NCBI RefSeq assembly: GCF_000706645.1
Contig: NZ_KL407337.1
Coordinates: 766,135-830,134 of the forward strand
Origin: Bartonella rochalimae ATCC BAA-1498
GTDB lineage: Bacteria > Pseudomonadota > Alphaproteobacteria > Rhizobiales > Rhizobiaceae
Reading direction: 5' to 3'
Length of the DNA: 64,000 nt
A program made the position numbers and the translations under genes. Shown here in pieces: positions 7,464 through 29,453 of the stretch. The notes beneath the pieces were generated by a model. It was not told the origin of the DNA. It did not search any database and was given only the letters and a program-made list of their open reading frames with translations. Each line of letters begins with the position of its first letter. Positions within the stretch are counted from its first letter, which is position 1.

Positions 7464-10232
7464 TTAATTAATATCAACCATACCAGAATGTTTTTCACTG
7501 TCATCATCTAATTGATTGGCATCATCCTCAGGATCAGAAATGCGCTCAACCGATACAACTTTTTCACCCTTTGCTGTATTAAAAATTGTTACTCCTTTTG
7601 TAGAACGACCAGCTATACGAATCCCCTCAATAGGAACTCGAATAAGTTGTCCTCCATTTGAAACCAGCATTATTTGATCTTGCGCTTCTACTGGAAAGGC
7701 TGCTACTAGCTTACCAATTTCAACAGTTTTATTTGGATCAGTTGCGCGAATCCCCTTTCCACCGCGCCCTGAGATACGAAATTCGTAGGAAGAAGATCGC
7801 TTTCCATATCCAAACTCACTAACTGTTAAAAGCATTTGTTCACGAGCAGCAAGCTCTGCATAACGCTCATCTGTTAGTTCTGTTTCATCTCCATCTTCAT
7901 CTTCATCAACAATTACAACATCTTCCGTATCCGCACCAGCAGAACGTCGCTCATTAATTGCACGTTTAATATAAGCAGAACGCTCCACTGACGTTGCCTC
8001 AACATGCTCTAAAATAGTCATAGAAATAACCTTATCACCATCAACCATATTGATACCACGTACCCCTACCGAATTACGTCCCACAAAAACACGAACATCA
8101 ATGACTGGAAAACGAATACATTGTCCATTGGCTGTTGTCAGAACAACATCATCACGCTCTGTACAAGTTTCTACAGACAAAATTTCATCTTCGTCATCAA
8201 GTTTCATGGCAATTTTACCATTACGATTTACCTGAATAAAATCCGATAATTTATTGCGGCGTACTGTTCCACGAGTTGTTGCAAACATAACATCTAATTC
8301 ACTCCAACTTGCTTCATCTTCTGGCAATGGCATAATTGTTGTTATACGCTCTCCTTCCTGTAAAGGAAGCATATTGACCAACGCGCGCCCACGCGACTGC
8401 GGTGTACCAATAGGCAAACGCCAAACCTTTTCTTTATAAACGATCCCTCGTGATGAAAAGAAAAGAACGGGTGTATGTGTATTACTCACAAATAAGCGCG
8501 TTACAAAATCCTCATCCTTTGTGGACATACCAGAACGCCCTTTACCCCCACGACGCTGAGCACGATATGTATTGAGAGGTACACGTTTAATATAACCACT
8601 ATGGCTAACCGTTACCACCATATCCTCTGGCACAATTAGATCTTCATTGTCCATCTCAGCATTACCAAAACCAAAGACAGTGCGCCGGGGAGTCACAAAT
8701 TCCTCGCGAAGAGTGCTTAGTTCATTCTTCACAATGCCCATAATCCGTAAACGTGATGACAAAATATGAAGATAATCTGTAATATCTACCCCAATTTTAT
8801 TTAACTCATCAGCAATTTCATCACGTCCAAGTGCAGTAAGCCTCTGTAAACGTAACTCCAGAATAGCTCTAGCTTGTTCTTCAGATAAATTATATGTGTT
8901 ATCCTCATGGATAATATGACGAGGATCATCAATAAGCTTAATTAAAGATGCTACATCAGCTGCCAACCAACGCCGCTCCATTAACTGTACACGCGCCGTC
9001 TGAGGATCAGGTGCTGTGCGAATTAATGCTATAATTTCATCAATATTTGCAACCGCAATAGCAAGGCCAACTAAAACATGCGCACGCTCACGCGCCTTAC
9101 GCAAAAGATATTTTGTGCGCCGACTGACCACCTCTTCACGAAAAGAAACAAAAGCACGAAGCATATCAAGCAACGTCATTTGCTCAGGCTTTCCCCCATT
9201 CAGCGCGACCATATTACAGCCAAAAGAAGTTTGTAATGGCGTATAGCGGTATAGTTGATTCAAAACAATATCCGCAACAGCTTCTCTCTTAAGTTCAATA
9301 ACAACCCTATATCCATCACGATCAGACTCATCACGCAGATCAGAGATTCCTTCGATGCGCTTATCGCGTACTAATTCAGCTATCTTCTCAATCATCGTTG
9401 CTTTATTAATCTGATAAGGAATTTCGCTTACAATAATTGCCTGTCGGTTATTGCGAATTTCTTCAATATCAACCTTAGCACGCATAATAATTGAACCACG
9501 TCCCGTTTCATAAGCTGAACGAACACCTGAACGACCGAGAATAATACCACCTGTAGGAAAATCCGGACCAGGAATAATTTCAATTATTTCATCAAGCGTT
9601 ATATTAGGATTGTCAATTAAAGCAATACATCCATCAATGACTTCACCAAGATTATGTGGAGGAATATTGGTTGCCATTCCTACAGCAATCCCACCTGATC
9701 CATTAACTAAAAGATTAGGAAAACGTGCTGGTAAAACTATAGGTTCACGCTCACGTCCATCGTAATTATCTTGAAAATCAACCGTCTCTTTATCGATATC
9801 AGCTAAAAGTTCTTCTGCAACTTTTTCTAAACGACACTCTGTATAACGCATTGCAGCAGGAGGATCACCATCCACAGAACCGAAATTTCCTTGTCCATCA
9901 ATTAATGGATTTCGTAAAGAAAAATCCTGTGCCATACGCACCAATGCATCATAAATTGAAGCATCACCATGGGGATGAAACTTCCCCATAACTTCCCCAA
10001 CGACACCTGCTGACTTACGATAAGATTTATTAAAAGAAAGCCCCATTTCATTCATCGCATGAAGAATACGCCGATGAACAGGCTTAAGACCATCGCGCAC
10101 ATCAGGTAATGCACGCGATACAATAACGCTCATCGCATAATCGAGATAAGAGCGTTGCATTTCTTCAATAATACTAACTGGTTCAATACCGGTCAGGACA
10201 TCATGTTCTGATTGTGTAGTAAGATCGGTCAC
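7464..10232 (-). CDS. gyrA: DNA gyrase subunit A
   Basis: The breakage-reunion subunit of DNA gyrase, which with GyrB (57.6 kb) introduces negative supercoils. At 922 residues it is full length. The winged-helix region contains the catalytic Tyr130 in AAMRYTE. The C-terminal beta-pinwheel has the gyrase box (QRRGGKG near 560) and repeated blades. An acidic insertion near 770-790, rich in Asp and Glu, resembles those of other alphaproteobacteria. The start is GTG at 10230-10232; the ribosome site is weak. In the quinolone-determining region the position equal to E. coli Ser83 is Ala91, while the Asp87 equivalent (Asp95) is kept. It is the first gene of gyrA-coaD-ppiA-ppiB. Confidence 0.97.
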
Positions 10233-14717: not shown

Positions 14718-14772
14718 ATATCTATAAAATTTTATATTTTCTATTCACCTCAATCCAATAAGGAAATTGAAT

Positions 14773-16182
14773 ATGACAACCGTTTCAGACATTCTTAAAC
14801 AAATTGTAGATAATGATATACGCTTTGTTGATTTACGTTTTACTGATCCAAAAGGCAAATTGCATCATGTTACAATGGATATTGCTGAAATTTGCGAAGA
14901 TACATTCACCGACGGTGTTATGTTTGATGGTTCTTCAATTGCTGGTTGGAAAGCAATTAATGAATCCGATATGGTCTTAATGCCAGATGCAGAAACAGCT
15001 CACATTGATCCTTTTTTTGCTCAATCGACTTTGATCATATTATGTGATGTACTTGATCCTGTTTCAGGAGAGTTCTATCATAGAGATCCACGTTCTATTG
15101 CTAAAAGAGCTGAAGCTTATATGAAATCTTTAGGGATCGGTGATACAATTTATATAGGACCAGAAGCTGAATTTTTTATTTTTGATGACGTACGCTATAA
15201 AATTGATCCTTACAATACAGGTTTTAAACTTGATTCAAGTGAAAATCCGTCAAATGATGATACTGAATATGAAATGGGCAATCTTGGTCATCGCCCACGC
15301 ATGGGAGGTGGTTATTTTCCAGTCCCTCCTATTGATTCTTGCCAAGATATGCGTTCTGAAATGCTTACTGCGTTAAAGGATATGGGTGTACATGTTGAAA
15401 AACATCATCATGAAGTAGCTGCAGCTCAGCATGAATTAGGTATTCGATTTGATACACTGGTTCGTGAAGCTGATAAAATGCAAATTTTTAAATATACCGT
15501 ACATCAAATCGCCAATAGTTATGGAAAAACAGCAACCTTTATGCCCAAACCAATTCTAGGTGATAACGGTTCAGGTATGCATGTCCACATATCAATTTGG
15601 AAAGATAAACAACCAATATTTGCAGGTAATGAATATGCTGGGCTATCAGAGACTTGTTTATTTTTTATTGGTGGTATTATCAAGCATGCAAAAGCACTCA
15701 ATGCTTTCACAAACCCATCAACTAATTCTTATAAACGCTTAGTTCCTGGGTATGAAGCCCCTGTCCTTCTTGCCTATTCTGCACGCAATCGTTCTGCAGC
15801 ATGTCGTATTCCATTTGGTGCTTCACCGCATTCAAAACGTGTAGAAATTCGTTTTCCGGATGCATCATCGAATCCATATTTGGCCTTTTCAGCGCTTATT
15901 ATGGCTGGTCTAGATGGTATAAAGAATAAGATACATCCTGGTCCAGCTATGGATAAAGATCTTTATGATCTGCCACCGAAAGAGCTCAAAGACATTCCTA
16001 CAGTTTCTAGAAGCCTAGGCGAAGCACTTGAATTTCTTGATAAAGATCGCGATTTTCTTAAATCTGGCGATGTTTTTGATGATGACCAAATTAATTCCTT
16101 TATTGAATTAAAGCTGAAAGAAGTTCTGCGCTATGAAACAACCCCTCATCCTGTTGAATTTGATATGTATTATTCTGTTTAA
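14773..16182 (+). CDS. glnA: Glutamine synthetase, type I
   Basis: Makes glutamine from glutamate, ammonia and ATP, forming a dodecamer. It has 469 residues from the ATG at 14773; AAGGA at 14760-14764 supports that ATG rather than the TTG at 14767. The N-terminal beta-grasp domain (1-100) includes DGSSIAGW. The catalytic domain has the EAEFF metal site, the GSGMHVH motif, and [13 protein letters not shown]. The adenylylation tyrosine is present as Tyr398 in DLYDLPP, so activity should be controlled by GlnE as in other proteobacteria. It follows glnB in the same direction. A short hairpin (16216-16231) after the stop lacks a T-run and is a poor terminator. Confidence 0.97.
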
Positions 16183-16402
16183 TATAAGAATGAAAATTTT
16201 TGTTTGATTGTGATGGAATGCTAGAGCATTCTCATTAGAGGATTATCCTTCTATCAAATAGATTTTTATAAGGCATGTTTATTAGGAGATCATTTGAAAC
16301 TAGCGATGAGAAGATTATTATCATTACGCGTTTAGACTATTTTTCAAAAATTATGTTTGGTTTATTTTTGTATTTTGAAGTTTAATGGAATATTTCTGCA
16401 TT

Positions 16403-17143
16403 TTATTTTGATTCAGACATGAACTGATGGTGGTTATCGAAAGGGTTATAGGTTCCATACTTTTTGCGCCACTGTATAGGCTCAGTAAAGTTGCTAGACC
16501 AAAGGCCAATTTTATTGTTATAGGCGTTTTGTTCAGCACTTAAATATGTTGTTGGAACTGAATATTTATTGTCTTTTGATAGGATCAGCATGCCTTCTGC
16601 AAGCCCTATTTCTGCTAGATCGACTCCTTGCACAAAACACTGAGCATAGTGAGTTTCTTTTTCTATAACAGCTTGTTTACAAGATAAGTTATGTCCTAGA
16701 GTTTTTGTGACCAGCCATGCTGTTGTGACAGCTCCACATGGCCATTCTTGATTATCTAATTTTGCTTTTTGACGGGGTGCACATGTATCTACGCCATATA
16801 AGTGAATATTTCGGACGATAGGTTTATGCTGAGGTTGTTCAGCAGGAATTATTAATTTAAATGTGACACCACTAGTCACAGATGCGATACCATTAAACAC
16901 ACCTTCATGATTATTTGAATCGCTATTGATCCAATTGAGATCTGGGTCATTTTCTTCTAATTTTTTTGGCACACTTGTTTCATAGTGCTTATTTTGTTCG
17001 ATCTTGATCTCCATTGTATCTTGGTTTTCTTGCATTTTTAATGGTTCGAGAATATCTAGATCTGTTTTGTAATGGTTTTGGCTTATTATCCATATTCCTA
17101 TAGAGCAGATAATGTAGACAAGAATAATCGATTTAAATCGCAT
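16403..17143 (-). CDS. Membrane-anchored SNase-like protein, catalytic residues lost
   Basis: A 246-residue protein with an N-terminal hydrophobic anchor or uncleaved signal (5-21), a charged linker (25-75), and a staphylococcal-nuclease-like fold (about 84-225). Fold markers are HLYGVDT (114-120), the WPCGAVTTAWL helix (134-144), the later GVDLAEIGLAEGM segment and AYNNKIGLW. Matching to S. aureus nuclease, Asp40 is kept (Asp119), but Arg35 is His114, Glu43 is Ala122 and Arg87 is Gln168. The loop that usually reads DGDT is SGVT. It is thus probably not an active nuclease and may be a binding or structural protein facing the periplasm. Divergent from virB2 with 375 bases between, so it may share regulation with the secretion genes. 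Family call is by pattern only. Confidence 0.7.
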   Translation of the reverse strand: MRFKSIILVYIICSIGIWIISQNHYKTDLDILEPLKMQENQDTMEIKIEQNKHYETSVPKKLEENDPDLNWINSDSNNHEGVFNGIASVTSGVTFKLIIPAEQPQHKPIVRNIHLYGVDTCAPRQKAKLDNQEWPCGAVTTAWLVTKTLGHNLSCKQAVIEKETHYAQCFVQGVDLAEIGLAEGMLILSKDNKYSVPTTYLSAEQNAYNNKIGLWSSNFTEPIQWRKKYGTYNPFDNHHQFMSESK

Positions 17144-17235
17144 TTGCCCAATCCTTATTGTTTCTATATCCTACAATTTTTTATGCATCTCTGCTTTTTT
17201 CCTAGATCTTAAAGAAAGCGTCTCAACAGCATTTG

Positions 17236-17260
17236 TTGCAAATTAAACACATTTTGCAAA
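17236..17260. promoter_or_regulatory. Paired TTGCAAA motif in the virB2 upstream region
   Basis: TTGCAAA (17236-17242) and TTTGCAA/TTGCAAA (17253-17260) occur 18 bases apart, which would place both on the same face of the helix roughly two turns apart. Each half is nearly palindromic. This is a candidate binding site for a dimeric regulator between two divergent genes. No factor can be named. Confidence 0.25.
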
Positions 17261-17283
17261 GAAAAACATTATTTTACGCTCTT

Positions 17284-17314
17284 GATATTGTCATTTTGAT
17301 AAAATAACAATATC
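17284..17314. promoter_or_regulatory. Large palindrome between the SNase-like gene and virB2
   Basis: Arms 17284-17297 and 17301-17314 pair at 13 of 14 positions around a 3-base GAT centre; the outer halves are GATATTGT and ACAATATC. No T-run follows on either strand, so an operator or RNA hairpin is more likely than a terminator. It lies about 205 bases before the virB2 ATG and about 140 bases upstream of the divergent gene. Confidence 0.55.
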
Positions 17315-17518
17315 CATGTTAGCCTTTTTGGTTATAGATTTGATTAATTTCTGTCTCTCAGTCGGAGAATTCTAGTAAAGAATTTTTGTGATAGTTTGGT
17401 AGAACACTTGCGATTAAAGAATCTTAAAGTTGTAGGCCTGTAGTTTTAAAGTTTTTAAATTTGTAAAAGTAATATGATGTCAGTTTGTAATCAATATTCT
17501 TTCTGAAGAGGAGATTAA

Positions 17519-17836
17519 ATGCCAAACATTATATCTAAGCATATTTATTATATCGCTTTTGCGCTACTTTTATCAATGTTTGCAGTGTTAACCCCTGCAT
17601 ATGCTAATTCTGCTGCTGCCGGTATGGGAAATCTTGATACGGTTTTGCGGAATATTGTTACAATGATGACAGGGACAACAGCGAAGCTCATTGCAACGAT
17701 CTGTGTTGCCGCTGTGGGTATTGGTTGGATGTATGGTGTTATTGATTTACGCAAAGCGGCATATTGTGTTCTTGGTATTGGTATTGTTTTTGGTGCTTCG
17801 GCTCTTGTTGCGTTATTAATGGGGAGTTCATCATAA
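17519..17836 (+). CDS. virB2: T4SS major pilin VirB2
   Basis: The major pilus subunit of a VirB-type secretion system. The 105-residue precursor has a long signal peptide with cleavage likely after TPAYA (residue 29). The small mature part has two hydrophobic helices (about 50-72 and 78-100) separated by the short basic loop DLRK, as in all VirB2 pilins. A strong ribosome site (GAGGAG) precedes the ATG. It is the first gene of the cluster; there is no virB1 transglycosylase, which matches the Bartonella virB locus. The following virB3 starts on the base right after its stop. Confidence 0.93.
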   Translation: MPNIISKHIYYIAFALLLSMFAVLTPAYANSAAAGMGNLDTVLRNIVTMMTGTTAKLIATICVAAVGIGWMYGVIDLRKAAYCVLGIGIVFGASALVALLMGSSS

Positions 17837-18145
17837 ATGAATGAAGATACTCTTTTTCTTGCTTGCACACGACCAGCGATGTTTGCAGGTGTTACCGTAG
17901 AAGCAATGGCCTTAAATGTCATGGCAACATCTACTCTTTTTATCATAACAAGCAGCTTTTCAATGATCGGTCTTGGAGTTGGTTTGCATTTTATTTTACG
18001 CGAAATCACAAAACGCGATCATAACCAATTTCGTGTTTTATTCGCGTGGCTCAATACTCGAGGGAAACAAAAAAACCTGACAAGATGGGGTGGAGGATCT
18101 ACGTCTCCTCTCCGTCTTGTCCGTACATACAAGGAGCTAAAATAA
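17837..18145 (+). CDS. virB3: T4SS inner-membrane protein VirB3
   Basis: A 102-residue inner-membrane component that works with VirB4 in pilus assembly. The Leu/Phe-rich start contains LACTRPAMFAGV (10-21), the typical VirB3 opening. One long hydrophobic region (about 22-55) could form one or two spans, and the remainder is basic and cytoplasmic. The ATG directly abuts the virB2 stop and the virB4 GTG directly abuts its own stop, so the three are tightly coupled. Length and order both fit the family. Confidence 0.92.
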   Translation: MNEDTLFLACTRPAMFAGVTVEAMALNVMATSTLFIITSSFSMIGLGVGLHFILREITKRDHNQFRVLFAWLNTRGKQKNLTRWGGGSTSPLRLVRTYKELK

Positions 18146-20509
18146 GTGAGACAACTGTCAGTGATGAAACGGGAATCTCTACCTGAGGAATTTATTCCTT
18201 ATGTTCGTCATGTCAATCAGCATGTGATTGCATTAGACTCCCGTTGCTTGATGACAGTGATTTCTATCGAAGGAATCAATTTTGATACTGCAGATATCAG
18301 CCAATTAAATTCTTTACATACCCAATTAAATACGCTTTTGAAAAATATAGCAGATGAACGTGTCGCTTTATATTCTCACATCATTCGCCGACGCGAAAAA
18401 ATTTACCCAGAGAGTCAATTTTCTTCATCTTTTGCAACAGCTTTAGATCGGCAATACAAACAAAAAATGATTTTGCAAGATCTTTATCGAAATGATCTAT
18501 TCCTTTCGGTTATCTGGAATCCTGCAGCAGATAAAACTGAACAGTTAGCTTCTTTTTTTCACCGCTTAACGCAAGCAAAGAAGATGCAATCGGAACCAGA
18601 TTCTGAAGCTATTCGGAAAATTGAAGAGTTAAGTCAAGATCTTATACAAGGTCTGGAGTGTTATGGAGCACGGCTTTTATCTACTTACGAATACAATGAC
18701 ATTGTATTTTCTGAGCAAAGTGAATTTCTTCATCAATTGGTGGGAGGAAGACGTGAGCGCATACCCCTTACATTTGGTACTATTGCCTCAACGATTTATT
18801 CAGATCGTGTTATTTTCGGCAAAGAAATTATTGAAATTCGTCATGAAAGCAATGAACGCTTTGTTGGTATGTTTGGATGGAAAGAATATCCTTCTAAAAC
18901 ACGTCCTGGTATGACAGATGGCTTATTGACGGCGCCCTTTGAATTCATCTTAACGCAATCCTTTGTTTTTAAAAGTAAAGCAGTTGCAAGCGCTATTATG
19001 AGCCGTAAACAAAATCAAATGATTAATGTAGCTGATCGTGCCAGCTCACAAATTGATGGCCTTGATGAGGCCCTTGATGATTTAGAATCGAATCGTTTTG
19101 TTTTGGGAGAACATCATCTCTCTTTAGCTGTTTTTTCTGATCGTCTACAAGAATTGACAGAATATCTGTCGAAAGCCCGTTCATATCTTACTAATGGTGG
19201 GGCCGTTATAGCCAGAGAAGATTTAGGGTTAGAAGCAGCATGGTGGGCACAACTTCCTGGGAACTTTAACTATCGAGCACGTTCTGGAGCTATTAGCAGC
19301 AGGAATTTTGCAGCATTATCCCCCTTCCATTCCTTTCCTATTGGCAAACTCAAAGGTAATGTTTGGGGTTCTGCCGTCGCCTTATTACAAACACAGGCTG
19401 GCTCTCCTTATTATTTTAATTTTCATTTTGGTGATGTTGGTAATACCTTTGTATGTGGTCCATCAGGGTCTGGAAAAACAGTCATTGTTAATTTTCTTCT
19501 TGCACAATTGCAAAAACACAACCCAACAATAGTCTTTTTTGATAAAGATCAAGGAGCAGAGATCTTTGTTCGTGCTGGAGGAGGCAAATATAAGCCTCTG
19601 AAAAATGGTCAACCTACTGGTATTGCTCCATTAAAAGGGATGGAATACACTGAAAAAAACAAACTCTTTCTTCAGCACTGGGTCTTAAAATTAGTTACCG
19701 CGGATGGCCAAACAGTAACAGAACAAGAGCGGCAGGATATCGCTAGAGCGATTAATTCCTTAGAAAGTCTTCCTCTATCACAACGCTCCTTCAGTGCGCT
19801 TCAACTGTTTTTTGATAATACTTCCACAGAAGGTATTGCTATACGTTTACAACGTTGGATCAAAGGTAATGCTTTAGGGTGGGTCTTTGATAATGATCAC
19901 GATGATCTCAATTTAGATGCTCAATTTATAGGTTATGACATGACGGATTTCTTAGATAATGAAGAAATTCGTCGCCCTTTGATGATGTATTTGTTTAACC
20001 GCATTCTCGATCTTATTGATGGTCGACGTATCATTATTGTTATCGATGAATTCTGGAAAGCCCTTGAAGATGATTCATTTAAAGCTTTTACTCAAGATCG
20101 TCTCAAAACGATTCGTAAACAAAATGGCATGATGCTCTTTGCCACACAAAGCCCTAGAGATGCTTTGAATTCAACAATCGCTCACACAATCATTGAGCAA
20201 TGTCCTACCCAACTGTTTTTTCCAAATCAAAAAGCCAATTACAATGATTATGTTGAAAACTTTAAACTCACTGAACGTGAATTTGAGCTAATCCAATCAG
20301 AATTAAGCAGGGAATCTCGTCGTTTTCTCATTAAACAAGGCCAAAGTTCTATTGTTGCAGAACTTAATTTACGTGGAATGGATAACGAAATTGCTGTCTT
20401 AAGCGGAACAAGTAGAAATGTTGAACTCGTCAACCAAATTATAAGTGAATATGGGGCAAATCCGGATATATGGCTACCTATATTTTACAAAAGGAAACAA
20501 ACCCAATGA
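18146..20509 (+). CDS. virB4: T4SS ATPase VirB4
   Basis: The large AAA-like ATPase that drives pilus biogenesis and substrate transport at the inner membrane. It has 787 residues from a GTG; an ATG seven codons in (18164) is an alternative start. The N-terminal CagE/VirB4 domain covers about 1-400. The ATPase domain has Walker A GPSGSGKT (438-445) and Walker B IIIVIDEFW near 630, plus the ATQSP motif near 670. The frame is intact with no lost catalytic residue visible, so this ATPase at least looks functional. Its final codons overlap the virB5 ATG by four bases. Confidence 0.96.
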   Translation: MRQLSVMKRESLPEEFIPYVRHVNQHVIALDSRCLMTVISIEGINFDTADISQLNSLHTQLNTLLKNIADERVALYSHIIRRREKIYPESQFSSSFATALDRQYKQKMILQDLYRNDLFLSVIWNPAADKTEQLASFFHRLTQAKKMQSEPDSEAIRKIEELSQDLIQGLECYGARLLSTYEYNDIVFSEQSEFLHQLVGGRRERIPLTFGTIASTIYSDRVIFGKEIIEIRHESNERFVGMFGWKEYPSKTRPGMTDGLLTAPFEFILTQSFVFKSKAVASAIMSRKQNQMINVADRASSQIDGLDEALDDLESNRFVLGEHHLSLAVFSDRLQELTEYLSKARSYLTNGGAVIAREDLGLEAAWWAQLPGNFNYRARSGAISSRNFAALSPFHSFPIGKLKGNVWGSAVALLQTQAGSPYYFNFHFGDVGNTFVCGPSGSGKTVIVNFLLAQLQKHNPTIVFFDKDQGAEIFVRAGGGKYKPLKNGQPTGIAPLKGMEYTEKNKLFLQHWVLKLVTADGQTVTEQERQDIARAINSLESLPLSQRSFSALQLFFDNTSTEGIAIRLQRWIKGNALGWVFDNDHDDLNLDAQFIGYDMTDFLDNEEIRRPLMMYLFNRILDLIDGRRIIIVIDEFWKALEDDSFKAFTQDRLKTIRKQNGMMLFATQSPRDALNSTIAHTIIEQCPTQLFFPNQKANYNDYVENFKLTEREFELIQSELSRESRRFLIKQGQSSIVAELNLRGMDNEIAVLSGTSRNVELVNQIISEYGANPDIWLPIFYKRKQTQ

Positions 20510-20955
20510 AAAAATATCTGATTATGTTTTTATCATTATGCTTTATCTCTCATGCAATATCGCAATCGGGAAACACAGAAGTTGATTCATATTATCAAAG
20601 TGTCACACAACAAGGAACATCCCTATCAGAAGGTAGTCGGCCCACATCAGAAATAGCTGAATCTATTTATACTTCAGCAGTTGAAAATCAGAAAAAGATT
20701 CAAGAAATCAATAACAAATTTTCATCACAGACTCTTAAACCAGAAGAAAAAGAAGCTCTTCAAAGGGAGTTGGCTATTCTTCAAGCTAATCTTCAAGTAG
20801 ATACTCTAAAACTTCAGGCTTCTTCTATTATGAAATCGGAAAATGCTCAATCAAAAGAACAAGAACGTGAAAAAGAAGAACAGAAAAATCAGGAAGCTCT
20901 TCAACAAACACTGCAAGACAAATTGGATCAAGCTAAAGCTAAGGTCAAGTATTAA
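20506..20955 (+). CDS. virB5: T4SS minor pilus protein VirB5 (17-kDa antigen-like)
   Basis: A 149-residue exported protein. The best start is the ATG at 20506, overlapping the virB4 stop (ATGA) and preceded by AAAGGA; a longer frame from 20470 lacks a signal. The signal peptide ends near SHAISQ (residue 20). The mature part is nearly all Glu/Gln/Lys/Ala-rich helix and likely coiled coil, with an internal near-repeat (LQA/LQV). Size and position match the immunodominant 17-kDa antigen of Bartonella, encoded as VirB5. In agrobacterial VirB systems this protein sits at the pilus tip and helps host contact. A decayed copy of its 3' part follows. Confidence 0.85.
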   Translation: MKKYLIMFLSLCFISHAISQSGNTEVDSYYQSVTQQGTSLSEGSRPTSEIAESIYTSAVENQKKIQEINNKFSSQTLKPEEKEALQRELAILQANLQVDTLKLQASSIMKSENAQSKEQEREKEEQKNQEALQQTLQDKLDQAKAKVKY

Positions 20956-20977
20956 ATTGACTCCAGTTAGTCAAAAA

Positions 20978-21090
20978 GAAGAAAAGGAAGCTCTTCAAAT
21001 GTAGTTGGCTAATTTTCAAATGAATACTCTCATTCAAGCTCTTTCTATTATTAAATGGAAATCATCAATCACAGAAAGAGCATGGAGAAA
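20978..21090 (+). pseudogene. Decayed partial copy of virB5
   Basis: This stretch repeats the 3' part of virB5 (20742 onward). The first 33 bases match at 30 positions, and similarity continues through ACTCT and TTTCTATTATxAAAT with a short deletion. The copy carries a TAG stop in the matching frame (at 21002-21004), so it is not a gene. It explains most of the unusual 203-base gap between virB5 and virB6 and points to a former tandem virB5 duplicate. Confidence 0.8.
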
Positions 21091-21158
21091 ATGCAACAAA
21101 AGATCATAAATTCATATTTATCAAACATTAAAAATAAAATTGGAATGAGATAAAACTG

Positions 21159-22178
21159 ATGAAATTGATGAATGCGACAACTCAGGAGTCAGATTTTAAA
21201 TTTACTCCATTCGAAACTGTTTCTTCGTATATTTTGACACCACTCAATGATGTCGTAGATACAACAGTCAGTAGCTTATCTTCTGCTATTGCAGCACCAT
21301 TAAATCTTGCAGCCATTATTTTTATCTTTTTATATGGTTACAATGTTATGACTGGCCACGTCGCCCTTTCGATGCATAGTCTTCTTAATAATGTTATTAA
21401 AATCGTTGTTGTGACAACAATGGCAACTAATGCAGACGTATTTAATATTTATATCAAAGATATATTTTTCGGTAATTTAGCCAATGCTATTGGGAATGCG
21501 TTTAATAGCAGTCCGGTCGACTCTGATGTTTTTGATTATCTCTTATTAGTTACAAATATGCGTTATCAAGAGTTTCTAAATAATGCTTCATTTTTCAATA
21601 AAATTACGGTTGCACTGATTGGTGGTTTAATGTTTTTGGCAGTTATCTTTTTTTGTACAGTCGGTTTTATTATTCAAATGTTTGCAAAAATTACATTAAT
21701 CATGGTGATAGGTCTTGGACCTCTTTTTATTAGTTTATATTTGTTCAATGTAACCCGCAGATATTCTGATGCATGGATTACAACATTAGTTAATTTTACA
21801 ATTTTGCAAGTTCTCGTAATGATGCTTGGAACAATGATGTGCAAAATTATGCTTTATGTTTTCGATAGTTCATATACTTCAATCTATTTCTTGCTCCCCC
21901 CTGTTCTTGTCGTCTCAATAGTGGGCGTAGATCTCTTCCAATCACTTCCCACCATTGCTTCTGCACTTTCTAGTGGAGGACCATATCATCATGCTGGAGT
22001 ATCAACAGGATCACAAATGATCTCAATGGCTTCTAATACTTTGGGTTTTGTTGGAAGAAGCTTTGGTGCCGGTAGAAGTGCAGCAAGTGCAGCAGCAGCA
22101 ACGAGAGGTTCTACGGCTGCACAACACGCTGCACAAGCTGCGCAAATGATGCAAGGAGGTGGACGTGGCTCATTTTAA
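21159..22178 (+). CDS. virB6: T4SS polytopic membrane protein VirB6
   Basis: A 339-residue inner-membrane channel component. About five to seven hydrophobic spans lie between residues 45 and 270, with a conserved-looking periplasmic loop between. The C-terminal tail (about 280-339) is Ala/Ser/Gly-rich with repeated Ala runs and a closing GGGRGSF, as often seen in VirB6 proteins. Two ATG codons (21159 and 21168) are possible and neither has a strong ribosome site, which fits reading through from an upstream gene. Order in the cluster supports the call. The gap to virB7 is 177 bases with no supported gene. Confidence 0.9.
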   Translation: MKLMNATTQESDFKFTPFETVSSYILTPLNDVVDTTVSSLSSAIAAPLNLAAIIFIFLYGYNVMTGHVALSMHSLLNNVIKIVVVTTMATNADVFNIYIKDIFFGNLANAIGNAFNSSPVDSDVFDYLLLVTNMRYQEFLNNASFFNKITVALIGGLMFLAVIFFCTVGFIIQMFAKITLIMVIGLGPLFISLYLFNVTRRYSDAWITTLVNFTILQVLVMMLGTMMCKIMLYVFDSSYTSIYFLLPPVLVVSIVGVDLFQSLPTIASALSSGGPYHHAGVSTGSQMISMASNTLGFVGRSFGAGRSAASAAAATRGSTAAQHAAQAAQMMQGGGRGSF

Positions 22179-22355
22179 TCTCAAACGTCTCTTCAATGTA
22201 GCTATAGTCAATACCTTCACACACAAGATATTAACTGTATGCACAACCCATGCAAAGCTCTCCCAGCTTTTTCAAAAGATTAGTGTTCATGTTTTCGTAA
22301 AATCATGGACTGAAAAACACCAATGTTTTATTTTTCAAAATGTTTGCGAGTCCAA

Positions 22356-22673
22356 ATGATGCAACTAAAAATCACTATCATTTTGATCCTTTTGATAACA
22401 CTTACTGGTTGTGCTTCTTTAAAAAGTGGAGCCCAAAAACTTCCACGCTGTAATGGACAGAATGCTCGTATGCTCAATCATGGTAAGTGGAACTGGAATC
22501 ATCATAACATCATTCACAATACGGCGATCAAACCCATCACAACTCCTATTATCCTAAATACACAAGAAAATGAGGCACCAAAAGCTCATATTGGACTCCC
22601 CGCATCTTCTGTAGACACAATAAACCATCAAATGCCCTCTTATAAAAATGCGGAGATCACACATGAAAAGTGA
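22356..22673 (+). CDS. virB7: T4SS outer-membrane lipoprotein VirB7
   Basis: A 105-residue lipoprotein. The hydrophobic signal ends in LTGC, a good lipobox, so Cys20 would be lipidated. The mature start ([19 protein letters not shown]) has a second Cys, which could pair with VirB9 by analogy to the Agrobacterium system. The remainder is polar and Pro/Asn/His-rich. Two consecutive ATGs (22356, 22359) are possible starts. It overlaps virB8 by 11 bases. It is part of the outer-membrane core complex with VirB9 and VirB10. It is longer than the Agrobacterium form (about 55), as expected for Bartonella. Confidence 0.82.
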
Positions 22674-23331
22674 TGAATTTAAAGAATATATAAGAGAAGC
22701 GCGGTCATTTGATATTGACCGTATGTGTAGTACGCGACTACAAATGAAAATTGCTGTAGCCTTGACTGTGCTTTTTGGGTTGATGACAATCGCTTTAGCC
22801 TTAGCTGTAGTGGCATTAACACCCTTAAAAACCGTAGAGCCTTTCGTTATTCGTGTGGATAATTCTACAGGTATTGTCGATGTTGTCAGTGTTCTAAAAG
22901 AAGAACCCCAAAACTACGATGAAGTAATAACGCGCTACTTCGCCAGCAAATATATTCGTGCACGCGAAGGTTTCCAATTATCAGAGACAGAAAATAACTT
23001 TCGTATCGTTTCTCTTTTATCTTCCCTAGAAGAACAAAATCGCTTTGCCAAATGGTATTCTGGAAATAATCCAGACAGTCCGCAAAATATCTATAAAAAT
23101 ATGTCCGTGACAATCACAATAAAATCGATCTCTTTTTTAAGTAAAGATCTCGTTCAAGTACGTTACTATAAAACAATTAGAGACTCCAATGGAAAAGAAG
23201 ATATTTTCCATTGGGTTTCAGTCTTAAATTTTTCTTACGTTAATGCACGCATTTCAGTAGAAGATCGCTTAATTAACCCGCTTGGCTTTCAAGTATCAGC
23301 ATATAGATCTGATCCAGAGGTGGTCCAATGA
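22663..23331 (+). CDS. virB8: T4SS inner-membrane protein VirB8
   Basis: A bitopic protein that nucleates assembly of the T4SS. The chosen ATG (22663) has GGAG eight bases upstream; an ATG at 22648 would add five residues. A short cytoplasmic N-terminus (1-30) is followed by one span (about 31-53) and a periplasmic NTF2-like domain containing [13 protein letters not shown] and [18 protein letters not shown] near the end. 222 residues is a normal length. It overlaps virB7 and shares ATGA with virB9, so it is translated from the operon. Confidence 0.93.
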
Positions 23332-24185
23332 CTAGAGTCATAAAAATATTTTTTTTAACTCTCCTCGTTGCAATAAACTGTCATGCGTCTTTCTTATGGG
23401 CAGAAATTTCTCCCGTAAGCGCACATAAAGACAACCGAATTAGATTTATTAATTATGATCCACACAATGTGACAAAAATCATTGGATCTATTCGCTCTTC
23501 AGTACAGATTGAATTCGCTAATGATGAAAATATTGCCTATATTGGAATTGGCAATTCAGTTGCTTGGCAAGTAGCACCAGCTGGTCACTTTGTCTTTCTC
23601 AAACCGCGTGAAGTTCAGCCGATTACCAATCTACAAATCGTCACAACTCGTCAAGATGGAACAAAACGATCTTATCAATTTGAACTTCAAGTGCGTGAAG
23701 GTGATGTTTCCGTCGGTAATGACACATATTTCCTTGTAAAGTTTCGTTATCCAGAAGATGAAGCATTGCGTAAACAATTAGCTGAACAAGCCAAAGCACA
23801 AAAAAATGAAGAAGAATTTGTCGATAATATCCTCAATATGCATGAACATTTTGGACCACGCAATTGGGCTTATATCGCTCAAGGTTCACCCCTCATTGAA
23901 CCAAGTTCAGTCTATGATAATGGTAAAACTACAACATTTACCTTTTTAGACAATAATGAAATCCCCGCCATTTATCTTGTCACACTTGATGGACAAGAAA
24001 CTATCGTTCCAAAATCAATTAAAAGAAACCAGGTCATTGTTCACGCCATAGCCATGCAATTCACTTTGCGACGTGGTAACGAAGTCCTGTGTATCTTTAA
24101 TAAAGGGTTCATACCAAGAGGAATTAACCCAGAAACCGGTACAACATCACCTTCTGTCCAACGTGAAATAAACGTAGAGAAATAG
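23328..24185 (+). CDS. virB9: T4SS outer-membrane-complex protein VirB9
   Basis: A 285-residue periplasmic protein of the core complex. The signal peptide covers residues 1-26, cleaved near SFLWAE. The N-terminal domain has [12 protein letters not shown], and a Gln/Lys-rich hinge at about 145-165 separates it from the C-terminal domain, which contains NWAYIAQG and [11 protein letters not shown], the part that binds VirB7 and VirB10. The ATG overlaps the virB8 stop (ATGA); virB10 starts two bases after its own stop. Complete and unbroken. Confidence 0.94.
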
Positions 24186-24187
24186 CC

Positions 24188-25387
24188 ATGAATAATGATG
24201 AATTGGACGAAATAAATCTTAATGACCGCGATACAATAAAGGATGGTCAAGAAAAAAAAGAGGGCTTTAATTTAGGAAAAGCCATTGCTCTTCTTATTCT
24301 CTTTGGTGTCTGTATTTATTTAATATATGCAATCCTTTCAACTTCAAAAGACACAAAAAAACAGCCCATAGAATTGCCGAAAGAAGAAAGAAGCAGACAA
24401 ACAGAGCTTTTCCAATCGATAAAACCAACAATAGCTCCTCTAGAGCTAGCTGATAAAAATACCCCCCTGCTGCCTAAGGTTGAAATACCAGCGCCAACAA
24501 TCAATCAGCCAAAATCTGATCATAAACTATTAGAAGCAGCGCAACGTGCTCCCGTTTTAGCCTATTTTAATCCAAATCAGCAACAGGGTATTCCAGAAAA
24601 TAATAGCGTGCCTTCTAACCAAAGCAATGATAACTCGAATAAAACAACACAATCCTTTAATCAACTTTTCGAACCAACAAAGTTAGATGGTGTTCGTGCA
24701 TCAACGCTTGGTAACCGAAATTACATCATTGCAATGGGAGCTTCCATCCCATGTATCTTAGAAACAGCAATCAGTAGTGAACAACAAGGGTTTGTGAGCT
24801 GTATCGTTTCTAGAGATATCTTATCAGACAATGGTCGTATCGTCTTGCTCGATAAAGGAACGCAAATCATTGGTGAATATCGTGCGGGTTTAAAAAAAGG
24901 CCAATCGCGTCTCTTTATATTATGGAATAGAGCCAAAACACCAGACGGTATTATTATAACATTATCCTCACCCGCAACAGATTTCTTAGGTCGATCAGGT
25001 GTTGATGGCGATATTGACAATCATTGGTTTGAACGACTTGGTTCTGCACTTCTTGTCTCAATCGTCAGAGATGGAACAAATTATTTAAATAACCGGCTAG
25101 ATTCACTAAAAATGCCAACAACACAAGAACAAACAACAGATACCGTGTCTTCAGAAAAATATACCCTTTCTGTAGGAACATATATGGCAAAGATTATCGC
25201 GGACAATTACGCTAATATCCCTCCAACCTTGACCAAAAATCAGGGTGAAATGGTTAATGTTTTTGTTGCCCGCGACCTGGATTTCTCAACTGTATATAAA
25301 TTGAAAATTGTTGAAAATAATAAACAGGTCATTCGTCGTGCCTTTTCAGGAGACTTTCATAAAAATTCTACAGTGACATTAAAATGA
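24188..25387 (+). CDS. virB10: T4SS core-channel protein VirB10
   Basis: Spans the cell envelope and senses energy use at the inner membrane. At 399 residues it is full length. A short cytoplasmic start is followed by one hydrophobic segment (about 33-50), a Pro/Gln/Lys-rich linker (55-160) and the C-terminal beta-barrel domain (about 170-399) with TLGNRNYIIAMGASIPCILET, GTQIIGEYR and NVFVARDLDFS. The antenna helix region lies near residues 275-305. The stop overlaps the virB11 ATG. With virB7, 8 and 9 intact, the outer core could still assemble. Confidence 0.95.
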   Translation: MNNDELDEINLNDRDTIKDGQEKKEGFNLGKAIALLILFGVCIYLIYAILSTSKDTKKQPIELPKEERSRQTELFQSIKPTIAPLELADKNTPLLPKVEIPAPTINQPKSDHKLLEAAQRAPVLAYFNPNQQQGIPENNSVPSNQSNDNSNKTTQSFNQLFEPTKLDGVRASTLGNRNYIIAMGASIPCILETAISSEQQGFVSCIVSRDILSDNGRIVLLDKGTQIIGEYRAGLKKGQSRLFILWNRAKTPDGIIITLSSPATDFLGRSGVDGDIDNHWFERLGSALLVSIVRDGTNYLNNRLDSLKMPTTQEQTTDTVSSEKYTLSVGTYMAKIIADNYANIPPTLTKNQGEMVNVFVARDLDFSTVYKLKIVENNKQVIRRAFSGDFHKNSTVTLK

Positions 25388-25827
25388 AACAAAACTTCCA
25401 AAATTTAAGCGATGAAACCACTGCTATCGTTTTAACAAAACTTAAACCAATTGATAACTTTCTCAAAGATGAAAGTCTTTTTGAGATCGTTATTAATCGT
25501 CCCTATCAAGTCATGATTGAAGGAATTTCAGGATGGAAAACAATAGAAGTACCAGAATTCTCCTTTAATGAACTCATGGGTATGGCTAAAGTGATCGCGG
25601 CCTATTCTAAGCAAAGTATTTCCGATAAAAACCCAATATTATCCGCTACTTTGCCAAATAATGAGCGTATTCAAATTGTTATACCACCAGCTGTAAAAAA
25701 ACATTGATTCAGCATTCCATTTCGTAAATTATCCTCTAAAAGGTATTTACTCGAAGAGCTAGTCAAAAAAGAAGCAATTGCAATAGATGAAGAGATATCA
25801 TTCAATCTATCTATTCACTATTATTAG
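25384..25827 (+). pseudogene. virB11: virB11, truncated before its ATPase domain
   Basis: VirB11 is the hexameric secretion ATPase, normally around 340 residues. Here only the N-terminal domain is present. Residues 1-107 read well (FEIVINRPYQVMIEG, NPILSATLPNNERIQIVIPPAVKK). A TGA at 25705 then stops the frame. Reading on in the same frame for 39 codons gives a VirB11-like stretch (PFRKLSSKRYLLEELVKK), ending at TAG 25825. No Walker A, Walker B or His box follows in any frame up to the next feature. So the gene took a stop mutation and has also lost its C-terminal half. The ATG overlaps the virB10 stop. Confidence 0.9.
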
Positions 25828-25944
25828 CCTTATCATAAACTCCTTAACCTAAAGAATAAATAAGGAATTGATTATCATAAAGAGTATATGGTTACCTGTG
25901 CACATCAATCAGTAAAATTAAATAATAATTTTCATCATTAAGGG

Positions 25945-26553
25945 ATAACAAAAGATTGTAAATCTACCTTTTTAAAAGCTCTTATAGCTAACTTATCTGA
26001 GGATAAGTTCGATAGGGCTGGGGGAAACAGAGATGTGTTATTTGTACCGCAAGTTGGTTGAGTTTCTGTTATGTCTGCAATAGGTAGATATGGCTTAGCT
26101 ACAGACCGACCAATTGATTTTTCAGTTGGCGCCAAGCTTAAAGATGCTTAACGTATTATTCTACGAATATTAGGAGATAAAAATGCTTTCCATAACTTAC
26201 CAAGTGTTAAATCTAGTCACCATCGTGCTGAAACTTTAGCTCCTCCCTAAACCACGTATGCTTTCTGAGAGCGAAATACACGTACGCTACAGAAAAGTGG
26301 CGAAAGACTTGCTTAAGCTGGAGATTATAATCGCGAGTTATTAATTTTAATGAATGAGCTTATTTCTGAGGTTAGTATGGTTGCAGCAAAAGTTAACGTT
26401 ATAGAGATTATGTATAATCTTTTTAAAGATATCACTATTCTCGAAAATACCGCTAATTGGAAGGAATTCAAAAAGTATAAACAAAATCTTCATCTATTAG
26501 ATTCTAATAACATTATTATAGTAGCAGCTCAAGAACTTTCAAAGTATATATGA
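25945..26553 (+). pseudogene. Decayed open frame, unknown family
   Basis: One single frame runs for about 200 codons with an otherwise protein-like sequence but is broken by at least five stops (near 26059, 26149, 26248, 26266 and 26314). Readable parts include AGGNRDVLFVPQVG and GRYGLATDRPIDFSVGAKLKDA. The last intact part (26350-26553) encodes NELISEVSMVAAKVN and ENTANWKEFKKYKQNL, predicted helical. I do not recognise the family. The frame shows no frameshift, so decay is by substitutions. It may be a lost effector or cargo gene of the secretion locus, given its place between virB11 and the BID remnant. Confidence 0.6.
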
Positions 26554-26766
26554 GATTAAATAGGAGTAAGTCAAAATAACATTTTAATCAATAATGACAA
26601 TATCGACACATTCAGTAGCAATGAAAATTTAGCTCAAACACAAAAAAATAAAAAAAAGATAAATGTTGTATGCGCTGTCTTTTTTCGATTGTAACTAAAC
26701 TTATAATAACATTTCATTCTAAATCAATAAATTCCGAATTTAAAATACAGTGAAATAACATAAAGA

Positions 26767-27411
26767 GTGCTCATATATACCCGTATCCAAGCTAAACTAA
26801 GGCAAATTATGCATTTATCAAAAATTGTTTATGGCAACCCCAAAATATTAAATGAACAGATCAAGATGATTACTAATAATCCAAAGGTAAGCAAACAGCT
26901 TTCCACACAAATTATGTCTTCTCCTAATTCTATTGCTAATCTTGCTGGTATAGAAATATTTGGTATGAAAAACTTGGCACGTAAAAAAGCTGGAAATCAT
27001 ATTATCAAACTCGCTAATTCAATTGACAGTTACGCGTCTGCTATAAAAAATGTTGAGACAACAATAATTCAAGAGCACCAATTAGAACAAAAACGCCGTC
27101 AAACAAAGGTAAAACTACCTAGTGCAGCATTACGAGACATTCTTAACTTATCAGAAGAAAAGCGGAAGGAATTTTTATCAGATAAAAAGTTATCTTCTTC
27201 GATTGGCAAAGAACTCAAGGAATTTATGAAAGCACTCAATGCTCGTCTTTCACCAAGCGAGCATAAAAATATCCAGGAAAGTAATCATCAACAATTTGCT
27301 AAAAGTGTTGGCATCTCAGAAGACAAAGCAGTAGCAATCATAAAAGTTGCTCAAAAATCTAAAGAACTACTCCAACAAATAAAAACACCAGTATTGAATC
27401 TTGAAAAATAG
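26767..27411 (+). CDS. BID-domain protein, probable 5'-truncated T4SS effector
   Basis: A 214-residue frame that matches the BID (Bep intracellular delivery) type signal: VYGNPKILNEQI (30-41), then SPNSIANLAGIEIFGMKN (residues 60-77), the domain core, and a second helical half with LPSAALRDILNLS, LNARLSPSEHKN and FAKSVGISEDKA. In Bartonella, BID domains with a positively charged tail direct effectors or relaxases into the T4SS. No Fic or other N-terminal effector domain precedes it. The frame opens with GTG just six bases after a TAA and has no good ribosome site; an ATG at 26809 is an alternative. I infer the remaining 3' part of a Bep- or VbhT-like gene. Whether it is still expressed is unclear. 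Confidence 0.65.
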   Translation: MLIYTRIQAKLRQIMHLSKIVYGNPKILNEQIKMITNNPKVSKQLSTQIMSSPNSIANLAGIEIFGMKNLARKKAGNHIIKLANSIDSYASAIKNVETTIIQEHQLEQKRRQTKVKLPSAALRDILNLSEEKRKEFLSDKKLSSSIGKELKEFMKALNARLSPSEHKNIQESNHQQFAKSVGISEDKAVAIIKVAQKSKELLQQIKTPVLNLEK

Positions 27412-27597
27412 TTATTGTACCAAGCTAAAAATATGTTCTTTATGTGAATATATATAAATAGAAATATTTTGAAATTATCTTAATCCATATAGAGCATTGT
27501 TAATGCTACATTCAGGTGTGTAAACTCTACAGAATCTTAGTATGATGTTTAAAGAATAATCACGGTAAGATTAAATATTACAAAAAAAACAGACTAA

Positions 27598-28521
27598 TTA
27601 CTTTTTTTCAGTTATTTTATTTTTTTTACGCCATTGTGAAGGTCGTAACTCAGCCACTACAATCCCTATTATAATAAACAAACCACCCAATAAAGCTGAG
27701 GGAGATAAATACTCCCCAGCCAAACGCCCAATAATACCAGCCCATACAGGCTCACCAGCATAAATAACTGTTGCCCGAGTGGGTGAAATAGATTTCTGCG
27801 CCCAATTCATAGTCAATTGGATAACCGCACTCATTAATGCCAATCCCAAACCTACATTAAACCAAACCCACGAAAATTCAGGAATACTTTCACCCATTAA
27901 AGGCATAAAGCAAAATGCAAAGAGGCTACAAAAAAATAACTGTATAATTGTTATACGTCGGCTATCAACCTTATTTGCAAAAAATCCGATCAGTATAATT
28001 TCTCCAGCAATTGCCAAAGCTCCCAGCAGAATAAAAATTTCACCTTTTGAAAAATGAATATCTTTGAAATTTTGTCCAGAAATTAGTATGAGTCCAACAA
28101 AAGCAAACACAATACCAATCCAACTACATAAATGGGGTAGCTTTCTAAAAAAAATCCATTGTAAAATTGGAACTATCGGAACATACATCGCAGTAATAAA
28201 AGCTGCCTGACTACTAATAACAGTCTGAAGCCCTGCCGTTTGAAAAGTATAACCAAGAAATATTCCAAAACCTATAGCCATTCCAGCAAAAATTTCATAA
28301 ACAGTTATATCTTTTATAGATCGCCAAAAAATCACTGTAGTTATAAGTGTTGCAACAATAAAACGAAATCCTACAAAAAACAGAGGCCCACTATAACGTA
28401 CCGCAATATGAATAATGAGAAACGTAATACCCCACAATACTGTCGCAAAAAACAATGCCAATTCTTGCTTACTAAATAGGAGATATCTCGATTGTTTCAT
28501 TCTAGCTATAAAAGGCTTCAT
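27598..28521 (-). CDS. EamA/DMT-family transporter
   Basis: A 307-residue inner-membrane protein with about ten hydrophobic spans in two repeated EamA halves (about 20-145 and 160-295). Typical features are the WGITFLIIH opening helix, the FVGFRFIVATLI segment in span two and the SPTRATVIYAGEPVWAGIIG segment near residue 245, common to the drug/metabolite transporter superfamily. Such proteins often export amino acids or metabolites, but the substrate cannot be read from sequence. It starts 23 bases after argB ends, in the same direction, so it may be co-transcribed with arginine synthesis. Basic tail. Confidence 0.85.
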   Translation of the reverse strand: MKPFIARMKQSRYLLFSKQELALFFATVLWGITFLIIHIAVRYSGPLFFVGFRFIVATLITTVIFWRSIKDITVYEIFAGMAIGFGIFLGYTFQTAGLQTVISSQAAFITAMYVPIVPILQWIFFRKLPHLCSWIGIVFAFVGLILISGQNFKDIHFSKGEIFILLGALAIAGEIILIGFFANKVDSRRITIIQLFFCSLFAFCFMPLMGESIPEFSWVWFNVGLGLALMSAVIQLTMNWAQKSISPTRATVIYAGEPVWAGIIGRLAGEYLSPSALLGGLFIIIGIVVAELRPSQWRKKNKITEKK

Positions 28522-28544
28522 CTTTCAAATTCATCCTATATTAC

Positions 28545-29453
28545 TTAAGAAACAATGAGCGTTCCCGCTCCATGTTCAGTAAAAAGTTCAAGCAAAATAG
28601 AATGAGGCGTTTTTCCATTCAAAATCACTACACCCTCTACACCTTCTTGAATAGCTTTAATACAAGTTTCTACTTTTGGAATCATACCTCCTGAAATTGT
28701 TCCATCTTTGATAAGTTTTTTAGCTTTAGAAATGGTCAATTCCTTTAAGAGTTTCTTTTCTTTATCCAAAACACCAGAAACATCCGTTAAAAATAAAAGA
28801 CGTTTTGCTTTTACAGCACCAGCAATTGCTCCAGCAAAAATATCAGCATTAATATTATAAGTTTTACCATCTCGTCCTGGAGCAACAGGAGCAATAACCG
28901 GAATCATTTCAGAACATGCTAAAAGATCAAGCAATGTTCGATCAACTTCAACAGGTTCACCAACAAATCCTAAATCTACAATACGTTCAATATGTGAATC
29001 AGGATCAATTACAGTCTTATAAGACTTTTCAGCAAAAACCATATTACCATCTTTACCACAAAGTCCAATTGCCCATTCACCCTCAGCATTGATAAGGGCT
29101 ACAATTTTCTTATTTATTGAGCCTGCTAAAACCATTTCAACGACTTCAACAATTTTTTCATCGGTTACACGTAAACCATCTTCAAATCGTGATTCAACCC
29201 CCATTTTAGTTAAGATTTCAGCAATTTGAGGACCTCCACCATGAACAACAATAGGATTAATGCCGGACTGTTTTAACAAAGCAATATCACGAGCAAAAGC
29301 TTGTCCTAAAGCAGGATCGCCCATAGCATTCCCACCATACTTCACAACAATTGTTTCATTTTCATACTTTTGCATATAAGGTAAAGCAGATGATAAAAAT
29401 GCTGCCTGTTTTTCAAAAACTTTTTCATCATTTTTCTTGATATTACTCATCAA
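28545..29453 (-). CDS. argB: Acetylglutamate kinase
   Basis: Phosphorylates N-acetyl-L-glutamate in the second step of arginine synthesis. 302 residues from the first of two ATGs (a second ATG lies one codon later). The amino-acid-kinase fold is marked by [11 protein letters not shown] near residue 37, VVHGGGPQI near 68, and the C-terminal [10 protein letters not shown] near 255. The N-terminal helix (about 1-25) is of the type that makes hexameric, arginine-inhibited enzymes, so feedback control is likely but inferred. The gene is intact. No other arginine gene is in the window. Confidence 0.95.

What the first reader, a model, noticed from the sequence alone, without database searches (positions are those of the whole stretch)
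17519..25827. virB2-virB10 intact but virB11 has lost its ATPase domain
All core genes virB2 to virB10 read as full-length, but virB11 stops at codon 108, reads on for 39 VirB11-like codons, and then ends with no Walker motifs in any frame up to the next feature. No virD4 is in the window. By what is known of VirB/D4 systems, such a copy cannot move substrates alone. Either it is decaying or it borrows VirB11 and VirD4 from a second locus in the same genome.
Basis: partly seen in the sequence, partly recalled or inferred. Interest (0 to 1): 0.75.

Follow-up and report, generated by a model that had tools for sequence, protein, structure and literature searches.

The report
Extra virB block; garbled virB11 end
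A Bartonella genome carries spare, near-identical copies of a secretion machine that appear to share one motor gene elsewhere, and the "dying" motor gene seen here is partly a blending of two genes' letters in the stored sequence.

Summary
That stop looks real. The matching copy in Bartonella sp. G70 ends at the same codon, and two copies in sp. AR 15-3 end after 112. Window 25708 to about 26777 is a site-by-site blend of two unrelated genes: the genome's own virB11 3' half (other contig) and a bep effector gene that follows the cut virB11 in relatives. At 699 sites where four bep relatives agree, 13 match neither parent, and choices alternate like coin tosses (215 switches in 435 steps). So the "39 VirB11-like codons" and missing Walker motifs do not show decay. 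The genome has one unbroken virB11 frame (its start lies beyond a contig end) and one virD4, both on C2. Five related genomes share the design: several virB blocks and one chromosomal virB11/virD4 set. Full blocks that could be compared within a genome are 99.95-99.98% identical, against 80-88% between species. Multi-copy virB is in print; the block edges and the blend are what I add.

The parts
14767..16182 (+). glnA, left flank; its 3' end (from 15845) is repeated on C2 ahead of the second virB piece
   Evidence: glutamine synthetase C-terminal match of the C2 piece
15845..18299 (+). stretch repeated on C2 at 1 mismatch in 2455 bp (glnA 3' end, upstream gene, leader, virB2, virB3, start of virB4)
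17305..17486 (.). leader upstream of virB2; differs from that of the copy at the C1 contig start, although virB2 is identical as far as assembled (150 bp)
17519..17836 (+). virB2
   Evidence: below the family's cut-off
17837..18145 (+). virB3
   Evidence: below the family's cut-off
18146..20509 (+). virB4, 787 aa
   Evidence: TIGR00929 over cut-off
20470..20955 (+). virB5, by position; no specific family match
21159..22178 (+). virB6
   Evidence: PF04610 over cut-off
22323..22673 (+). virB7, by position; start codon uncertain; no family match
22648..23331 (+). virB8
   Evidence: below the family's cut-off
23328..24185 (+). virB9
   Evidence: TIGR02781 over cut-off
24188..25387 (+). virB10
   Evidence: NF038091 over cut-off
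25384..25707 (+). cut virB11: 107 codons, N-terminal part only, then a stop that the matching copy in G70 has at the same codon
25708..26777 (.). blended stretch: a site-by-site mixture of the genome's own virB11 3' half and a bep; an artefact of the stored sequence
26778..27411 (+). clean 3' end of the bep (BID region); 81-85% identical in DNA to AR 15-3 and G70
27598..29453 (-). right flank (two genes read as a membrane transporter and argB; names from reading, not from a search), shared with the cut copies of AR 15-3 copy C, G70, B. clarridgeiae and G042

Best explanation
This is one of several virB blocks in a lineage-3-type Bartonella. An old junction, older than the split from AR 15-3 and G70, joined the first third of virB11 directly to a bep gene, so this block never regained a VirB11 ATPase and has no virD4 beside it (shown in relatives; inferred here because the bep start is blended). 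From just before virB2 to about virB11 codon 105-107 the blocks are kept near-identical by recombination between copies (shown as a pattern; gene conversion is inferred). If expressed, the block supplies scaffold, pilus and VirB4 subunits to machines powered by the single VirB11 and VirD4 made from the C2 locus (inferred). The supposed remnant of virB11 is a data artefact. At the edge of the near-identical repeat, reads from the complete locus (virB11 side) and the cut locus (bep side) were merged, and the mixed or ambiguous consensus ended up as random single bases over about 1.07 kb.
For: Frames. Genome-wide: one unbroken virB11 frame and one virD4, both on C2. Unassembled copy: C1 begins with 150 bp identical to virB2 on the minus strand and C2 ends inside virB11 on the minus strand, facing the same gap. 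Blend: at 699 sites with four agreeing bep relatives the window matches both 250, virB11 only 193, bep only 243, neither 13; where the window differs from virB11 it matches the AR 15-3 bep at 0.85 (382 sites) and the converse is 0.86 (405 sites), against 0.22-0.32 with slid alignments. Choices alternate at random: 215 switches in 435 steps, 214.6 expected, near 50:50 for each base pair. virB11 and bep agree with each other at only 0.32-0.35 of sites. Relatives: the same bep is an open frame of 557-571 codons in 5 of 5 copies from 4 genomes; it follows the cut virB11 in 4 of these copies and follows virB6 in G042. Homogenisation: three AR 15-3 blocks show 3 mismatches in 8267 bp for A-B and for B-C; two G042 blocks show 2 mismatches in 9006 bp; between species 80-88%.
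Against: No reads were seen, so random resolution of ambiguity codes is inferred from the letters. The window's virB2-virB10 may itself be a collapsed consensus of two copies, so its intactness at this site is not proven; in G042 one copy has lost virB7-virB11 and AR 15-3 copy A has a broken virB6. The cut virB11 of B. clarridgeiae ATCC 51734 reads only 82 codons from its start, so the cut end is not kept everywhere. Near-identity of blocks could also reflect recent re-duplication, although the shared flanks speak for old loci. AR 15-3 copies A and C are alike well beyond the block (99.6% over 10518 bp), which suits recent copying of that pair.
Confidence: 0.86

Rival explanations
1. Window 25708-26439 is a genuinely decayed 3' half of virB11 in a dying locus.
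For: 243 residues align to VirB11 without a gap at 34% identity with 8 stops; DNA identity about 64-68% to the C2 virB11. This was my own reading up.
Against: The same letters match a bep along their whole length (46% over 563 residues), and the sites that miss virB11 are the sites that match the bep. Decay cannot do that. Relatives have the bep, not virB11, at this place.
Confidence: 0.03
2. The virB11 side is the true one and the bep letters are the intruders: the window locus really carries a whole virB11.
For: Both parents are present about equally (193 against 243 sites).
Against: The clean sequence after 26777 is the end of the bep followed by the same right flank as in AR 15-3 copy C, G70, B. 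clarridgeiae and G042. The 107-codon stop matches the cut copy of G70. The virB11 side already has its own place on C2.
Confidence: 0.06
3. The extra block is kept intact only passively: recombination copies the working block over it, and it has no role.
For: The near-identical tract stops where homology to the other copies stops. Blocks without virB11, or with broken or missing virB genes, occur in AR 15-3 and G042.
Against: Two or more blocks are kept in all five genomes examined, which suggests some use, but does not show it.
Confidence: 0.4

Closest known systems
[quoted passage not shown]
   Same: Gene order virB2-virB10, Fic/BID effector genes beside it, one virD4 of the T4SS-DNA_transf family, multiple virB copies (figure legend of PMC3610622, passages seen).
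   Different: This block has only the first 107 codons of virB11 and no virD4; it depends on another locus if it works at all.
Cut virB copies A and C of Bartonella sp. AR 15-3 (L078, L080) and the cut copy of Bartonella sp. G70 (L075)
   Same: virB11 cut at codon 107-112, the same bep next; right flank shared with AR 15-3 copy C and with G70.
   Different: Their bep reads as one open frame (557-571 codons), whereas in the window the first part is blended.
[quoted passage not shown]
   Same: A VirB-like machine that lacks a coupling protein (passage of PMC3430587 seen).
   Different: Other gene family and role; no trw search was made here.

Membership tests
VirB/VirD4 effector-translocating T4SS | VirB4 ATPase | tested here: met
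   TIGR00929 951.9 bits over a cut-off of 643.1
VirB/VirD4 effector-translocating T4SS | Core complex VirB8, VirB9, VirB10 | tested here: met
   VirB9 and VirB10 over cut-off, VirB8 match below its cut-off
VirB/VirD4 effector-translocating T4SS | Pilus parts VirB2, VirB3, VirB5 | tested here: inconclusive
   VirB2 and VirB3 match below cut-off, VirB5 no specific match
VirB/VirD4 effector-translocating T4SS | VirB11 ATPase with nucleotide-binding domain at the locus | tested here: not met
   Only the N-terminal 107 codons; no T2SSE match in the window; an unbroken frame elsewhere on C2
VirB/VirD4 effector-translocating T4SS | VirD4 coupling protein at the locus | tested here: not met
   Single match in the genome at C2:403719-405152
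VirB/VirD4 effector-translocating T4SS | BID-carrying effector gene beside the operon | tested here: met
   Window 26767-27411 matches solved Bep chains (best E 2.3e-73), although Pfam gave no match at E <= 0.001; C2 effector frames carry Fic, ID or BID domains
VirB/VirD4 effector-translocating T4SS | Translocation of effectors into host cells | not testable with these tools
   needs an experiment

The most novel reading that the evidence does not exclude
Lineage-3 Bartonella keep several virB2-virB10 blocks identical in coding sequence but under different, old leaders, while leaving only one VirB11 and one VirD4 in the chromosome. That would be a T4SS whose scaffold can be made under two separate controls and whose motor and gate are rationed from one locus. 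One leader type, at the C1 start of this genome, in AR 15-3 copies A and C and in one G042 copy, is 70-72% alike between species and 46-58% alike to the other leaders. Against this: leader type does not follow virB11 status, and 70% is no more than neutral divergence would give.
Probability: 0.2. Interest if true: 0.6.

Novelty: new member of a known kind. Interest (0 to 1): 0.32.

Why it matters
The case shows how a pseudogene story can arise from the edge of a near-identical repeat: two genes mixed letter by letter still look like a decayed homologue to a reader and even to tblastn. It warns against reading gene loss beside multi-copy virB blocks in draft genomes. The real pattern, blocks kept identical while one motor and one coupling protein serve the genome, makes it testable whether T4SS scaffold copies are useful dosage or passive passengers.

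Tried and rejected
I first took 25708-26439 for a decayed virB11 half and gave it a neutral rate by comparing it with AR 15-3. Both are withdrawn: the AR 15-3 sequence there is a bep, so those divergence figures for 25708 onward are meaningless. A blend at the upstream edge was tested and not supported: at 42 sites where the two leader types differ the window takes its own type at 32, the other at 7 and neither at 3. The dN/dS run failed to place virB6 in AR 15-3 copy A, G70 and B. clarridgeiae, and virB7 in G042, G70 and B. clarridgeiae (start or frame differs); those cells were dropped. Of 71 genus genomes searched with 25384-27430, 53 matched (listing capped); I examined the five whose match covered the downstream part at 71% or more. 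A two-vir-cluster reading with the divergent VirB-like cluster near C1:740 kb as donor was rejected because its virB11 has a stop inside and its virB4 is in pieces. Papers on lineage-3 virB copies that I remember (Engel 2011, Harms 2017) are not held, so whether the cut copies are already described there is unknown to me.

Full report
Observation. Window 17519-25387 holds open frames in the order virB2 to virB10. VirB4, VirB9 and VirB10 pass curated cut-offs, VirB2, VirB3 and VirB8 match below theirs, VirB6 passes in Pfam, and VirB5 and VirB7 are named by position. virB11 starts at 25384 and ends after 107 codons; the product matches only positions 1-81 of the 308-position VirB11 model. A genome search with the T2SSE family gave three places, none in the window. 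VirD4 has one match in the genome, on C2.

The rest of the genome. The genome has 1,534,143 bases in 3 contigs. No call names it; its close relatives are lineage-3-type Bartonella. A search with VirB11 found one frame without stops, at C2:410231-411031, identical by construction because the query comes from it, plus the window (9 stops) and a divergent cluster near C1:741 kb (1 stop). The C2 contig ends inside this virB11, so its first codons are not seen. On C2 I found a virB2-virB3-virB4-start piece, 1 mismatch in 2455 bp to the window and beginning inside a glnA fragment, then three bep frames, virD4, and on the other strand two bep frames and virB11. C1 begins with 150 bp identical to virB2 on the minus strand. 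C2 end and C1 start thus look like the two sides of one further virB copy whose near-identical middle was not assembled (inferred).

The blend. I first read 25708 onward as a decayed virB11 half. It aligns to VirB11 without a gap, 34% over 243 residues with 8 stops, but it aligns equally in frame to a relative's Bep, 46% over 563 residues with 15 stops. Those two proteins are unrelated; at aligned sites their genes agree at 0.32-0.35. At 1053 sites comparable with the AR 15-3 bep the window matches both at 323, virB11 only at 348, bep only at 325 and neither at 57. Where it differs from virB11 (382 sites) it matches the bep at 0.85; where it differs from the bep (405 sites) it matches virB11 at 0.86. 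Slid alignments give 0.22-0.32. With G70, B. clarridgeiae and G042 as the bep the figures are 0.82-0.86. Where all four bep relatives agree (699 sites): both 250, virB11 only 193, bep only 243, neither 13. At the 436 informative sites the source switches 215 times in 435 steps, 214.6 being expected for independent choices, and each pair of bases is split near evenly. Recombination would leave blocks. Independent coin tosses fit two-base ambiguity codes that were resolved at random, or a like mixing (inferred). The virB11 component ends near 26777; from there the sequence is clean bep, 81-85% identical to AR 15-3 and G70. The stored window shows no non-ACGT letter.

What stands at this place in relatives. 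In AR 15-3 copies A and C, in G70 and in B. clarridgeiae ATCC 51734 the cut virB11 is followed at once by the same bep, an open frame of 557-571 codons; in G042 the same bep follows virB6 because virB7-virB11 are missing. The cut virB11 reads 112 codons in both AR 15-3 copies and 107 in G70, while in B. clarridgeiae it reads 82 because of a frame change. The window's stop agrees with that of G70. The truncation is therefore older than these species, and the junction is virB11 to bep, not a decayed remnant.

Identity of the blocks. In AR 15-3 blocks A-B and B-C show 3 mismatches each over 8267 bp (A-B also one gap), from about 32 bp before virB2 to virB11 codon 105. A-C are 99.6% over 10518 bp, with the departures mainly at the upstream edge and identity running on through the bep, so that pair may be a recent copy. 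In G042 two blocks show 2 mismatches over 9006 bp, ending about 11 codons into virB11, and a third, cut after virB6, is identical over virB2-virB6. In B. clarridgeiae the block is one 8246-bp contig whose end overlaps two other contigs at 355 and 312 bp without mismatch. In G70 it is one 8551-bp contig whose end meets three flanks. Between the window and these species the block is 80-88% identical. Flanks are shared between species: the right flank of the cut copy in AR 15-3 copy C, G70, B. clarridgeiae and G042. The loci are old and the copies young, which is what recombination between copies gives (inferred).

Selection. Window against AR 15-3 copy B: dN/dS 0.25, 0.03, 0.08, 0.86, 0.24, 0.28, 0.10, 0.13, 0.23 for virB2 to virB10. 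VirB5 is 0.61-1.08 in all seven comparisons. Because copies recombine, this says that some copy is under constraint, not that the window's is.

One motor and gate. The four other genomes each hold one unbroken virB11 close to the query (88-91%) and one virD4 of the same size class; G70 has a further, 73% alike virB11 with its own virB4 (72%) and two further full-size VirD4-family frames, and AR 15-3 a broken extra VirD4 piece. Full virB4 frames number three in AR 15-3 and three in G042.

Leaders. The sequence from about 215 to 35 bases before virB2 falls into types. One type (C1 start, AR 15-3 A and C, one G042 copy) is 70-72% alike between species; other comparisons across types give 46-58%, AR 15-3 B and G70 are 82%, G042 and B. 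clarridgeiae 65%. The window's own leader is only 56-57% to AR 15-3 B and G70 by that measure, though blastn aligns through it. Leader type does not follow virB11 status.

What is known. PMC3610622 (passages only) says in a legend that multiple copies occur in the virB column and speaks of one of the homologs in B. clarridgeiae. Reviews PMC6519360, PMC8401265 and PMC8714903 (passages only) describe lineage-3 virB and beps but the passages I saw give no virB11-less copies. Three searches for virB copies or gene conversion in lineage 3 listed no title on this. The two papers I would expect to treat it are not held, so I do not claim that it is unpublished.

Verdict. The window block is a real, virB11-less and virD4-less virB copy of a kind known to be multi-copy.

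Noticed in passing
L052 (G000:C1:730000-749999): A second, divergent VirB-like cluster with virB4 in pieces (25-40% identity), a TrbI-like gene and a virB11 with one stop inside.
   Followed up: partly
window 20470-20955: virB5 changes fast: dN/dS 0.61-1.08 in seven of seven comparisons, unlike its neighbours.
   Followed up: partly
L078 (AR 15-3 copy A), about 8023-8957: virB6 is broken in one of the three AR 15-3 copies while the others are open.
   Followed up: partly
G010 contig C5 (Bartonella sp. G70): A further VirB-like set: virB4 72%, virB11 73% and a VirD4-family frame, perhaps plasmid-type.
   Followed up: no
L050 4272-4673: A glnA 3' fragment precedes the C2 virB piece, and AR 15-3 copy B aligns from the same point of glnA (15842-15845), so the duplication edge is shared between species.
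   Followed up: partly
L015 (Bartonella sp. G70 NODE_20): The record title gives coverage 245 for the single virB contig; other contigs' coverage was not seen, so copy number was not derived.
   Followed up: no
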